Positions 3,125 through 40,037 of a DNA stretch of 64,000 nt are shown piece by piece. This stretch comes from Ophiocordyceps camponoti-saundersi (nom. inval.) (Eukaryota > Ascomycota > Sordariomycetes > Hypocreales > Ophiocordycipitaceae), in NCBI GenBank assembly GCA_003339415.1, contig PDHQ01000070.1:1-64000 (forward strand). The letters run 5' to 3'. How positions within the stretch are numbered: the stretch's first letter is position 1; each line of letters opens with the position of its first letter. The position numbers and the translations under genes were made by a program. The notes below the pieces were generated by a model. That model saw only the letters and a list, made by a program, of their open reading frames with translations, was not told the origin of the DNA and searched no databases.

Positions 3125-3310
3125 TATAAGGGTTCGGCCTCCGGGCTATTTATAAGAAGGTGACTTTATTATTTAGAATAATTATAAAGAATTATAGAAA
3201 AGGGGTCGTAACGCCTAATAGGGGTAGGCGATCCGCGCGCGCGCCGCGCGCGGAAATAACTAATTACTTTACGTAACTTAGCTATTCGAGCATAGCCCGA
3301 ATCCCTTATA
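3125..3310 (-). repeat. Left LTR of nested Ty3-like element
   Basis: This 186-bp repeat begins TATAAGGG and ends CCCTTATA, the RIP forms of TG...CA termini. It matches 11203-11388 over its whole length. All the differences I can see between the two copies are transitions. It contains a 21-nt palindromic CG tract at 3233-3253. With the element on the minus strand, this is the 3' LTR. Confidence 0.9.
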
Positions 3311-32914: not shown

Positions 32915-33070
32915 GCAGTGATAGCAGTGATAGCAGCAAGGGCGGCGGCAATCGTGACGGCGAGGGCGAGAGCAGCAGTGGCAGCAGTGACAGAAGAAGG
33001 CGAAAGAGGAGAGCAGTGGCAGAAGCAGCAGAGAAGGGCGGTGGTAGAAGCATCAGGAAATCCAGCAAGA
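32915..33070. repeat. Degenerate GATAGCAGT / GCAGTG tandem repeat
   Basis: Three perfect 9-bp GATAGCAGT-type units are followed by a decaying purine-rich series of GCA and GGC triplets. One plus-strand frame reads Ser/Asp/Arg-rich and the minus strand Leu/Pro-rich. This comes from the triplets and is not evidence for a gene. Confidence 0.6.
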
Positions 33071-36665: not shown

Positions 36666-38090
36666 CTAAAACCCATGCTGCTCCAGCCACTGCTCCAGCT
36701 CCGCCTCCGCCTTCATCCTCAGCCCGACCCTTTCCCCTTCGTCCATCCCGAGCAGCTCGCGTTCATCAGCCAATCGAAACGGACAAAGCAGCTTCTGAAA
36801 GCGCAACAAGTCGAGTATCCCATCCAAGCCTTTGATATCCCTCAGAGAGACGACGCCATTCTTCCTCATAGCCTCGTTCCACGCCTTGGAAACTCGCCAC
36901 GTCTCGATAGATTCCTCGTTCAGCGTGGTTGGTTGCCTGCTGAAGTCTCCCGATAAGATAGCCGCTTCGATCTCTTTATGCTCATGGCTTATGTTACCGA
37001 AGTCGTGAAGGGCGGAAACGAACTCGTCGAACGGGTTGGAGACGAAAGACCAGTCGAAGTCTAGGATGGCGGTGATGGTTTTACTTTCCTTGTCGAAAAG
37101 CATGTTGTTCGTCGCTGTCATCAAGCTTCAGTTAAAAAACATCATCAGAGTTTTTCCCAATCATCACACGTACTAAAGTCTCCGTGTATCAAGCACTTTC
37201 GATACAAATCGACATCAGCGAGGATTTTCTCGACGCCACCGCCTCGAATCAACTTTTCGATCCTTTTATCTATGCCTTTCCCCTTCCAGCCTCGTATGAC
37301 GGGGCTGCGGGCGGCGGCTTCGAAGCGAGATCGTATCTTGCCGATTTTCAACTCGGCATAAGAGCTCACCGGTTCGCCTTTGGTGAGCGGTGCCTCTCCG
37401 CTGACGATTCGACCGGCGGAATCGAACTTGAGACCGCCGAATTTGGTTACGGTTTCGGGTAATTTCGCAGTCTGAATGGCGCGGAGGAGATGAGCAATCT
37501 GCTCCAACACGTTTTCCTTATCCTTGAAGTCGAGGGAGGAGAATTCCGTATCCAAGTCGACGCCTGGCCTCAGTTCCGACATGATCCAACCGAAATTCTC
37601 CTCATCCGCAACATCATCTTCAAGCTTCTTTGCCGACGCCCAGGCGTAGATGGCCGGCACCAGCGAATCGTGACCGGCTTGCGCGAGAGATGGACGAACA
37701 AGATGCTGGACCGCCACGTCATTTTCCACGCGGTTGGTGTTGTTTATATCGTGCAGGGCCGAGTTGCTGAGCTTCACGACTAGAGTTGACACGCCGGTTG
37801 AGGGTGCTTTTGTCGTACCAGGCTGCGTTCCGGGGAATGAAGTCGACGACGCTGAGGTTGTCAATTCCACTTTGAAGAGGTAGTTGTTGTAGGGGTATTG
37901 GTATTCTTCACTGTAGGCCAGGGTTGAAATGTCGGATGCCTTTTTTTCTCGCAGACGAAGGCCAGTGAGTGAGTGATGAATTTCCGTGTACGTGATATCG
38001 TCTGCTTACCTGGAGGCCGCGACTGCGTAGTAGCTGCTTCACGACGGCGAGTCGTCGCTCATAGCCTGCTTGGTTTGCATTGGTAGTCAT
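36666..38090 (-). CDS. APH-fold small-molecule kinase (aminoglycoside phosphotransferase-like)
   Basis: Three exons (38010-38090, 37174-37939, 36666-37114) encode 431 residues. The catalytic loop reads LIHGDFTTNNML at about 278-288 once the 59-bp second intron is removed. The metal-binding strand follows as ILDFDWSF at about 298. This HGD...N plus DFD layout is the APH/choline-kinase fold. The fungal members are a large family with mostly unknown substrates, and I do not infer antibiotic resistance. The acceptor of intron 1 is an unusual AAG after an A run (37940-38009). It is the only one I found that keeps the SEEYQYPYNNYLFKV segment in frame, so this junction is the least certain. Confidence 0.83.
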
Positions 38091-38559: not shown

Positions 38560-40037
38560 TCAATGGATACCCATCCCCTTATAATCGACAGTATCAATAG
38601 GCTCCTCGTTAAGATCAGGATAAGCCAACTCACGCCAGCGGATATACTCCTACCGAGATGGATTAGCCAGTGAAACATCAGCATTCTCACGAAAACAAGG
38701 TGGCTCACAAGGCAGTGAATGGCATGAACCTCAATATCCCGCGTCATCTTCTCAGCTTTACCATCGATGTGCCACGCAAGAAGCATCCGAAGATTGGCAA
38801 GGCAGTGCAGCTTATGATACGTGCTCTGCGTGAAGCCAAAGCCGTTGACCTGACCGCCCTCGACGAAGTTGGGCTTCCCCTCGACCTGGTCGGTGCTCCA
38901 GAAGCCGCCGTGCTTGATGGACGAGTTCCAGTAGTCGGACACGAACTCGTCTCCGTGCGACGCCGTCTTCTCCGCTTCTTGCGCCGTCAGCTCCGGCTTG
39001 CCGCGGATCCGGCGCGAGATGTTGATCCTCTCGATCGCTCCCAGCGCGAGGTTTTGGCGGTCGAGGAGGTTGTTGTATCCGGAGTCGCTTTGGTCCTTGG
39101 AGGTTGTGCTTCTCTTGACCTTTTGGTTGTCCGTCATGGTTCCGCTGCGCAGATACATGGCCTCCCGAGCCTCCTCGGCTGTGCTTCTCTTGTTAGGGGA
39201 CGTCATCGTTCCACCACGGAGGTAGACTGCCTCTCTGGCCTCGCCGGCAGTGTCTCTCTTGACCTTGTTAACAGAGGTCATGGTTCCGCTGCGGAGATAC
39301 ATGGCTTCTCTGGCCTCTTCAGCGGTGCTTCTCTTGACCTTTTGGTCACCTGTCATCGTGCCACTGCGCAGATACATGGCTTCTCTGGCTTCTTCGGCGG
39401 TGCTTCTCTTGACCTTCTTGGGATCAGTCATCGTGCCACTGCGCAGATACATGGCCTCCCTGGCCTCCTCAGCAATGCTCCTCTTATTAGGGTACGCCAT
39501 GGCTCCGCTGCGAAGATAAATGGCTTCCCTGGCTTCTCCGGCGGTGCTTCTCTTATTAGGGTACGCCATGGCTCCGCTCCGCGTGTAAGCCGCTTCCCGA
39601 GCCTCCTCAGCCTCACTCCGCTTATGGACGCAAGCGAAGTTCTTAGCGGTGACCGAATCACGAGAGACGGGTAGCTTCATGCCAAAAGCCTGCGAGAGGT
39701 CAATGAGAGGGAGGTCAAGAGCCTCGCGTTCGATGTTGACCCTGACGATAGAGCAATGAGCATCAATGACACGGCTTCTTCCCTTCCACGTGTGATATAC
39801 AATGGTATCAACTCACCGCATCATGGTATCATGACGAAAAGCCTGACCGGAATCACTCTGGTCGTAGAGATGCTCCTTCGCAACGTCGTATCGTTTCCGC
39901 GTATCCTTGGAGAGCGTCTTCTGCCAATCCTGAGGCGAACGAGCCTCTATGGCGCCCGCCGAAGCTGGGATGGACTGCGCCGTGACGGCTACAAGGAGAT
40001 AGGCTAATGCGCCGTGCGGAATCTTGAGGTTGACCAT
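38560..40037 (-). CDS. Secreted Kex2-repeat precursor fused to a UstYa (DUF3328) oxidase domain; candidate RiPP gene
   Basis: Three exons (39817-40037, 38709-39741, 38560-38649) encode 447 residues. Residues 1-27 are a signal peptide (hydrophobic core ALAYLLVAVTA). An RKR site occurs at 47-49. Residues 116-284 are seven tandem repeats of 23 or 25 residues with consensus A-x-EAREA-x-Y-x-R-x-G-x-M, each ending Lys-Arg, the Kex2 cleavage site. Residues about 300-447 resemble UstYa: HKLHC at 383-387 and HAIHC at 413-417, then EYIRWRELAYPDLNEEP. The second HxxHC joins EYIRW only after removing a 59-bp intron (38650-38708) with GTGAG, CTAAT and TAG signals. UstYa proteins oxidatively cyclise Tyr-containing peptides in ustiloxin-type pathways. 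Here precursor and oxidase appear in one chain. Product and activity are inferred. Confidence 0.85.
39111..39617 (-). repeat. Seven coding tandem repeats of 69 or 75 bp
   Basis: Copies of 69, 69, 75, 75, 75, 69 and 75 bp encode the Lys-Arg-ending repeats of the preceding gene. The 6-bp length difference is the presence or absence of Lys-Val before the final Lys-Arg. Variation concentrates before and after the invariant Tyr (Ala/Ile/Met/Val; Thr/Leu) and in the three residues before the processing site. Confidence 0.93.

What the first reader, a model, noticed from the sequence alone, without database searches (positions are those of the whole stretch)
38560..40037. Single-chain fusion of a Kex2-processed repeat precursor and a UstYa-type cyclase
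Seen: signal peptide, seven Lys-Arg-ended repeats each with one invariant central Tyr, and a C-terminal domain with two HxxHC motifs 30 residues apart, all in one spliced frame. Known: in ustiloxin, phomopsin and asperipin pathways the Kex2-processed precursor and the UstYa/DUF3328 oxidases are separate genes. Inference: this protein may cyclise its own repeats, or those of sister copies, before Kex2 releases them. That would be a one-gene RiPP, comparable in logic to plant BURP-domain autocyclases. No methyltransferase, peptidase, tyrosinase or transporter gene sits beside it. I cannot check whether such fusions have been reported.
Basis: partly seen in the sequence, partly recalled or inferred. 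Interest (0 to 1): 0.93.

Follow-up and report, generated by a model that had tools for sequence, protein, structure and literature searches.

The report
Fungal peptide precursor fused to its oxidase
A gene from an ant-infecting fungus joins, in one protein, a string of repeated peptides and a copper-oxidase-like domain of the kind that normally comes from a separate gene and ties such peptides into rings; the same joined gene is found in related fungi, so the protein may modify its own peptides.

Summary
On the minus strand at 40037-38560, three exons encode 447 residues, identical to NCBI CP533_5979 of Ophiocordyceps camponoti-saundersi. All seven KR-ended Tyr repeats and both HxxHC motifs lie in one exon, so the fusion does not depend on splicing. 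The C-terminal domain matches Pfam UstYa, barely over the cut-off here (25.2 vs 25 bits) and better in some relatives. Two searches gave 36 family members, this one included; those with names fall in 13 genera. 35 of 36 carry repeats, 28 of 36 repeats plus two intact HxxHC motifs. Between the seven repeats, synonymous sites are near saturation while the peptide is conserved (pN/pS 0.15). A domain-only search found no stand-alone close relative; a split precursor/UstYa pair exists in the same genome. Best reading: a one-gene, self-modifying dikaritin-like RiPP. The chemistry is inferred, not shown. Kex2 release is less certain across the family: 78 of 129 repeats follow a dibasic site, 7 of 7 here. 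Ten searches of the held papers, several with capped lists, showed no report of such a fusion.

The parts
38560..40037 (-). whole gene: signal-like segment, leader, seven repeats, UstYa-type domain, 447 aa, three exons
   Evidence: gene model; identical NCBI protein P0001
39817..40037 (-). exon 1: hydrophobic N-terminal segment (residues 1-20) and first part of the leader
39742..39816 (-). intron 1, 75 nt, GTGAG..CAG
   Evidence: some unnamed relatives read without splicing lose similarity just upstream of this boundary (P0020, P0021, P0023, P0025, P0026)
38709..39741 (-). exon 2: rest of leader, all seven repeats and the UstYa-type domain through both HxxHC motifs
38650..38708 (-). intron 2, 59 nt, GTGAG..TAG
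   Evidence: 14 of 36 members have Val (GTN) right after HCL, as this intron read through would give, 20 of 36 have HCL[ED]Y as when spliced, 2 of 36 neither
38560..38649 (-). exon 3: conserved C-terminus (EYIRWREL...EEPIDTVDYKGMGIH) and stop
39645..39929 (-). conserved leader region, residues 37-106 (contains intron 1), predicted helical
   Evidence: pLDDT of residues 41-100 is 65-83 per 10-residue block
39111..39617 (-). seven repeats (residues 116-284), each with RExxY and ending in Lys-Arg
38563..39110 (-). C-terminal UstYa/DUF3328-type domain, residues 285-447 (contains intron 2)
   Evidence: Pfam PF11807 25.2 bits at residues 342-424
38802..38816 (-). first HxxHC motif, HKLHC 383-387
38712..38726 (-). 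second HxxHC motif, HAIHC 413-417
36666..38090 (-). downstream APH-type kinase-like gene (3 exons, 431 aa); next to the fused gene also in the Diaporthe ilicicola prediction P0014; involvement unproven

Best explanation
This is a one-gene ribosomal peptide pathway. The protein enters the secretory pathway by its N-terminal signal. The C-terminal UstYa-type domain forms the dinuclear copper site of DUF3328 enzymes and oxidises the conserved tyrosine of each attached repeat, in its own chain or in the partner chain of a dimer, most likely making a side-chain cross-link. Proteolysis after the Arg that ends each repeat (Kex2 in this species) then releases the modified peptides and the enzyme. Shown here: the fusion, its conservation, the UstYa match, the motif conservation and selection on the repeats. 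Inferred: secretion, copper, catalysis on the attached repeats, cross-linking and release.
For: Repeats and both motifs are in one exon. Pfam UstYa matches here and in 18 of 20 aligned members at E<=0.01, best 4.1e-10. Profile comparison aligns the domain through both motifs with one canonical UstYa frame of the same genome at 95% probability, but only 58%, 12% and 5% with the other three frames tried. 28 of 36 members have repeats and two intact HxxHC motifs, with 25 residues between them in each. Tyr stands at the centre of 83 of 85 distinct repeats found without using that position; R-4, E-3 and M+6 are at 95-99%, though those were used in the finding. pN/pS is 0.15 between the window's repeats. 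A domain-only search found no close stand-alone relative: 33 of 34 hits carry repeats, the exception being a frame without organism name. The CctR paper reports that HxxHC(x)nHxxHC forms a binuclear copper centre and that motif mutants lose activity (PMC12435403, abstract and passages).
Against: No product, RNA or biochemical data. The match in this protein is 0.2 bits over the cut-off, five of eight members rescanned singly are below it, and the six-frame PF11807 search of the genome did not list the window gene among its 11 matches. The C-terminal domain and repeats were modelled at low confidence (mean pLDDT 46.5 and 47.5), so no geometry could be read. The domain of P0001 has only the two motif cysteines, so the C-terminal disulfides described for CctR cannot form, and beyond residue 40 no stretch is hydrophobic enough to look like an anchor. 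Four Metarhizium-type members of 36 have a changed first motif and one or two repeats, so activity may not be kept everywhere. Repeat boundaries are dibasic in only 78 of 129 cases.
Confidence: 0.66

Rival explanations
1. The repeats are released as linear, unmodified signal peptides, as in alpha-pheromone-type precursors, and the UstYa-type domain acts on something else or only helps folding and export.
For: Most repeat precursors have no cyclase nearby: 22% of 7878 KEPs are accompanied by a DUF3328 gene (PMC7329392, abstract and passages). The repeat unit here is 23-25 residues and not obviously like the YVIP and YAIG cores of phomopsin and ustiloxin.
Against: Two intact HxxHC motifs in 29 of 36 members, 28 of them with repeats; a near-invariant Tyr is what UstYa enzymes use; the fusion is kept across 13 named genera.
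Confidence: 0.17
2. The attached domain is a docking or dimerising partner; a separate UstYa enzyme of the genome does the oxidation in trans.
For: The genome has other UstYa loci: 11 matches on seven stretches of six contigs. Ustiloxin needs UstYa, UstYb and the tyrosinase homologue UstQ together (PMC6514808, passages). CctR acts as a dimer (PMC12435403).
Against: The domain keeps its own HxxHC pair here and in 29 of 36 members; no other UstYa match fell in the window's contig, though that search also missed the window gene itself.
Confidence: 0.1
3. The repeats are not released; they form an extended arm or pro-region of a secreted enzyme.
For: In Drechmeria 9 of 10 repeats, and in the Diaporthe-type P0014, P0018 and P0019 all but the first, follow QR, SR, AR, DR or ER, which are poor Kex2 sites as recalled. 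Repeat number falls to one in several members.
Against: All seven repeats here, and 78 of 129 in the family, follow KR or RR; an Arg precedes 128 of 129. The window's repeats are under strong peptide-level selection.
Confidence: 0.06
4. A gene-model or assembly artefact joins two genes.
Against: One uninterrupted exon carries repeats and both motifs; 34 of 35 other members carry repeats, and all but one of those also an HxxHC-type motif downstream (P0029 is cut short).
Confidence: 0.01

Closest known systems
Dikaritins (ustiloxin, phomopsin, asperipin-2a, victorin, epichloecyclin; list from PMC10512285)
   Same: Secreted precursor with Kex2-ended repeats and a Tyr in the unit; UstYa/DUF3328 partner
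   Different: There precursor and UstYa are separate genes; here one chain, with no tyrosinase, methyltransferase or peptidase among the eight neighbouring frames scanned
Kex2-processed repeat proteins (KEPs; Le Marquer 2019, Umemura 2020)
   Same: Meets the repeat criteria of Umemura 2020: at least 3 repeats of 8 or more residues between dibasic sites; signal-like N-terminus
   Different: Carries an enzyme domain; in the 12 of 22 passages shown DUF3328 is described as a neighbouring gene
DUF3328 copper oxidases such as CctR, AprY, ApnU
   Same: Two HxxHC motifs, in two successive predicted helices (low confidence)
   Different: Domain is short, lacks the membrane anchor and disulfide cysteines described for CctR, and is fused to a candidate substrate
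Plant fused BURP-domain burpitide cyclases
   Same: Logic: cores and copper cyclase in one autocatalytic chain, multicore precursors common (PMC12186524, passages)
   Different: Different domain (Pfam finds UstYa, not BURP), different kingdom, Kex2-type boundaries
Borosins (omphalotin OphA)
   Same: Fungal RiPP with precursor fused to its modifying enzyme (PMC6514808, passages)
   Different: There a methyltransferase with the core at the C-terminus; here an oxidase-type domain with cores on its N-terminal side

Membership tests
UstYa/DUF3328 (PF11807) | profile match over the curated cut-off | tested here: met
   25.2 vs 25 bits; 18 of 20 members at E<=0.01; of eight members rescanned singly 3 are over the cut-off and 5 below
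UstYa/DUF3328 (PF11807) | two HxxHC motifs | tested here: met
   383-387 and 413-417; 29 of 36 members with two intact motifs
UstYa/DUF3328 (PF11807) | membrane anchor, as in CctR | tested here: not met
   only the N-terminal signal-like segment is hydrophobic; maximum 1.3 beyond residue 40. A feature of CctR; I do not treat it as defining the whole family
UstYa/DUF3328 (PF11807) | C-terminal disulfide cysteines, as in CctR | tested here: not met
   the domain of P0001 has only the two motif Cys. A feature of CctR; not treated as defining
UstYa/DUF3328 (PF11807) | copper- and oxygen-dependent oxidation | not testable with these tools
   needs purified protein
Kex2-processed repeat protein | at least three repeats of 8 or more residues between dibasic sites | tested here: met
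   seven repeats of 23-25 residues ending KR; criteria from PMC7329392 section 13
Kex2-processed repeat protein | signal peptide | tested here: inconclusive
   hydrophobic N-terminus, similar starts in members with a complete N-terminus; no signal-peptide predictor on hand
Dikaritin RiPP | precursor plus UstYa homologue(s) that cyclise Tyr-containing cores | tested here: inconclusive
   both parts present, but in one chain; product unknown
Dikaritin RiPP | separate precursor and UstYa genes in a cluster | tested here: not met
   one gene; neighbours scanned are porin, asparagine synthase, GH47, UPF1, Brix and APH
Autocatalytic fused RiPP (burpitide/borosin logic) | core peptides and modifying enzyme in one polypeptide | tested here: inconclusive
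   candidate cores and enzyme-type domain are in one polypeptide; that they are core and enzyme is inferred
Autocatalytic fused RiPP (burpitide/borosin logic) | enzyme modifies its own cores | not testable with these tools
   needs biochemistry or mass spectrometry
BURP-domain cyclase | BURP domain | tested here: not met
   Pfam scan at E<=1 lists only UstYa and, below its cut-off at E 0.29, CHB_HEX_C_1

The most novel reading that the evidence does not exclude
A fused, self-modifying class of dikaritin-like RiPPs: one secreted polypeptide carries its own dinuclear copper oxidase and installs tyrosine cross-links in its tandem cores. It is spread across insect-, nematode- and plant-associated Hypocreales (lifestyles as recalled), including ant-infecting Ophiocordyceps, and is a fungal counterpart, independently evolved, of plant fused BURP cyclases.
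Probability: 0.55. Interest if true: 0.9.

Novelty: new variant of a known kind. Interest (0 to 1): 0.8.

Why it matters
If right, one gene is enough to make a side-chain modified peptide in a fungus, so enzyme and substrate come in a fixed pair whose chemistry can be tested from a single open reading frame. Genome mining that looks for a UstYa gene beside a repeat gene could misread this class. It would add to borosins and plant burpitides a further case of RiPP precursors fused to their modifying enzyme, and a second copper-based one.

Tried and rejected
Structure: two AlphaFold jobs (full-length P0001 with 20 sequences; single-repeat relative P0012 with 32) gave mean pLDDT 46.5 and 47.5. 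I ran no fold search on them because low-confidence models give meaningless matches. PDB sequence searches found nothing credible (0 hits at E<=1; 3 hits, best E 0.059, chain 4D2).

Other Pfam matches: five families each matched one of 20 members at E<=0.01 (among them a snake-toxin and a DUF model); I take them as chance on repeats, since none recurs.

APH kinase as an obligate partner: promising because Diaporthe ilicicola P0014 is a predicted merger of the two genes. Partnership is left open.

Codon comparison with Biopython NG86 was discarded: it took in an eighth chance RExxY near the C-terminus, and only 10 of 28 pairs gave a usable dS. It was redone on the seven repeats with uncorrected pN/pS. 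A first repeat logo was biased because its pattern required Tyr; one search repeats it without that position. One search's fixed-offset cleavage-site count missed shifted registers; one search replaces it.

Rows dropped: alignment A1 used 20 of the 29 proteins; A2 used 32 of 36 (without P0014, P0028, P0029, P0136); the domain tree used 28 of 36; the profile used 14. The tree has 7 of 25 inner branches with strong support, so it does not decide whether Diaporthe got the gene by transfer.

Literature: ten searches showed no report of a precursor/UstYa fusion. Lists were capped: 25 of 6,008, 31 of 32, 25 of 134,356, 20 of 308, 17 of 18, 25 of 245; some of the terms were broad and gave mostly unrelated papers. 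Most RiPP chemistry papers are in subscription journals not held; the DUF3328 cyclase paper PMC12143957 is not held. Supplementary tables, where such proteins may be listed, could not be read. Passages on Beauveria ustYa genes (PMC12142624) could not be tied to the fused gene.

Full report
What is there. The minus strand at 40037-38560 carries a three-exon gene of 447 codons. The predicted protein is identical to NCBI CP533_5979 of Ophiocordyceps camponoti-saundersi (P0001), whose contig length, 157,706, equals that of the window's contig C670. From the N-terminus: a hydrophobic, signal-like segment; a leader of about 95 residues; seven repeats of 23-25 residues ending in Lys-Arg; and a 163-residue C-terminal domain with HKLHC and HAIHC. 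The gene is single in its genome: a protein search found only its own three exons.

Identity of the domain. Pfam UstYa (PF11807) matches residues 342-424 with 25.2 bits against a cut-off of 25. The match is marginal for this protein; 18 of 20 aligned members match at E<=0.01 with a best E of 4.1e-10, and P0012 scores 34.9 bits over profile positions 55-184. Of eight members rescanned singly, three are over the cut-off (P0004, P0008, P0012) and five below it: P0014, P0020, P0027, P0132 and P0134, the last four without organism name. The six-frame PF11807 search of the genome gave 11 matches and did not list the window gene. A profile of 14 family domains aligns with one canonical UstYa frame of the same genome at 95% probability, through both motifs and the segment after them; three other frames gave 58%, 12% and 5%.

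Distribution. The full-length search gave 29 proteins at E<=0.001 and a domain-only search 34 at E<=1e-5, together 36, the window's own included. Named sources cover 13 genera: Ophiocordyceps, Drechmeria, Pochonia, Conoideocrella, Beauveria, Purpureocillium, Claviceps, Lecanicillium, Metarhizium, Epichloe, Aphanocladium, Hirsutella (Hypocreales, as recalled) and Diaporthe (not Hypocreales, as recalled). 35 of 36 have at least one recognisable repeat, with 1 to 10 per chain. 29 of 36 have two intact HxxHC motifs, 28 of these with repeats. The exceptions: four Metarhizium-type members whose first motif departs from HxxHC (P0013, P0024, P0028 and the unnamed P0131), P0014 whose second motif departs, P0135 whose first motif is missing from the predicted protein, P0029 without the domain, and P0136 without repeats. 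The domain-only search reached no stand-alone close relative: 33 of 34 hits carry repeats. It is word-limited (136 candidates), so canonical UstYa proteins were out of its reach. Fourteen of 36 members have valine right after HCL, as the window's own intron 2 donor would be read; 20 of 36 have HCL[ED]Y as when spliced.

The repeats. Finding repeats without using the central position gave 85 distinct ones, with Tyr in 83, Pro in one (at the divergent end of P0029) and His in one (P0132). R-4, E-3, R or K at +2, G+4 and M+6 are the other conserved positions, though these helped to find them. Among the window's seven cores (17 codons, 21 pairs), pS is 0.75 and pN 0.12, ratio 0.15: old copies held to one peptide by selection, not a recent tandem expansion. 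Arg precedes 128 of 129 repeats in the family but the site is dibasic in only 78 of 129; here it is KR in 7 of 7, in Drechmeria in 1 of 10. Kex2 release is therefore well supported for this species and doubtful as a family rule.

Mechanism. DUF3328 is now reported as a family of binuclear copper enzymes: in CctR the HxxHC(x)nHxxHC motif forms the copper centre, motif mutants are inactive, and the enzyme works as a dimer on O2 with electron input (PMC12435403, abstract and passages). [quoted passage not shown] A chain with an intact motif pair and tandem Tyr repeats is most simply read as enzyme plus substrate. I put about two in three on oxidation of the attached repeats, and somewhat less on a cross-link in particular. 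Which atom pairs with Tyr is unknown; the +2 basic residue and the +6 Met are the first places to look (inference). Differences from CctR that could matter: no hydrophobic anchor besides the N-terminal segment, no further cysteines in the domain, and a short C-terminus. Structure prediction did not help: the domain was at pLDDT 28-64 per 10-residue block, although both motifs fell in two successive helices. The leader is better predicted than the enzyme (residues 41-100 at 65-83 per block) and conserved, so it may be a recognition or folding element (inference).

Surroundings. Between about 30 and 50 kb I scanned eight frames or models: asparagine synthase (two), porin, GH47 mannosidase, UPF1 helicase, Brix protein, the APH-like kinase, and one frame without a match. 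Other parts of the window were not scanned with Pfam, and small or spliced genes could be missed. No other UstYa match fell in this contig, and an HxxHC scan of the window showed only single motifs and one cysteine- and histidine-rich low-complexity frame at 32989/32929 besides the gene itself. The APH-like kinase (38090-36666) starts about 470 bases after the stop. The same genome has an ordinary split arrangement at C659, a repeat precursor with 14 similar units ending KR or RR beside UstYa frames, so both designs coexist.

Known or not. Plant burpitide pathways occur as fused and split types (PMC12186524, passages), and the omphalotin precursor is fused to its methyltransferase (PMC6514808, passages). 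For DUF3328, the passages I read treat precursor and enzyme as separate genes (PMC7329392, 12 of 22 passages and section 13, and a search for fusion words with no hit; PMC12048977, PMC10512285, PMC9233826 and PMC9632046, passages). Ten searches with partly capped lists showed no report of a fusion. The library lacks most subscription journals, and supplementary tables were not readable; some of these proteins may be listed there as KEPs without comment.

Verdict. A new variant of a known kind: a fused dikaritin-type system.

Noticed in passing
L022 (G000 C659:61000-70999), minus strand, about 1693-926, with HxxHC frames near 3238/3148 and 5055: Ordinary split arrangement in the same genome: a repeat precursor frame with 14 similar units ending KR or RR, centred on Trp (DEAWKFH...), beside separate UstYa frames.
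   Followed up: partly
window 36666-38090, minus strand: APH-type kinase gene next to the fused gene; the pair is also adjacent in the Diaporthe ilicicola prediction but on different contigs in three other genera.
   Followed up: partly
relatives P0013, P0024, P0028, P0131: Metarhizium-type members have a first motif that departs from HxxHC and only one or two repeats: enzyme motif and repeat array may decay together.
   Followed up: no
L018 (G000 C22:189000-198999), plus strand: A frame with NVTLHRR-type repeats lies near a UstYa match; possible second split precursor.
   Followed up: no
L016 (G000 C15:95000-104518), plus strand: A frame with charged, low-complexity EKRRKEKLEAD-type repeats lies near two UstYa matches; it met the script's repeat count but does not look like a peptide precursor.
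   Followed up: no
window 38670-39674, plus strand: A 334-codon antisense frame overlaps the fused gene; probably a by-product of its codon usage.
   Followed up: no
protein residues 37-106 (window 39929-39645): The leader between signal and repeats is conserved and predicted as a small helical unit, better than the enzyme domain itself.
   Followed up: no
P0014, P0018, P0019: Diaporthe ilicicola and two unnamed members form one supported group in the domain tree among Hypocreales; transfer or ancestry is not resolved.
   Followed up: partly
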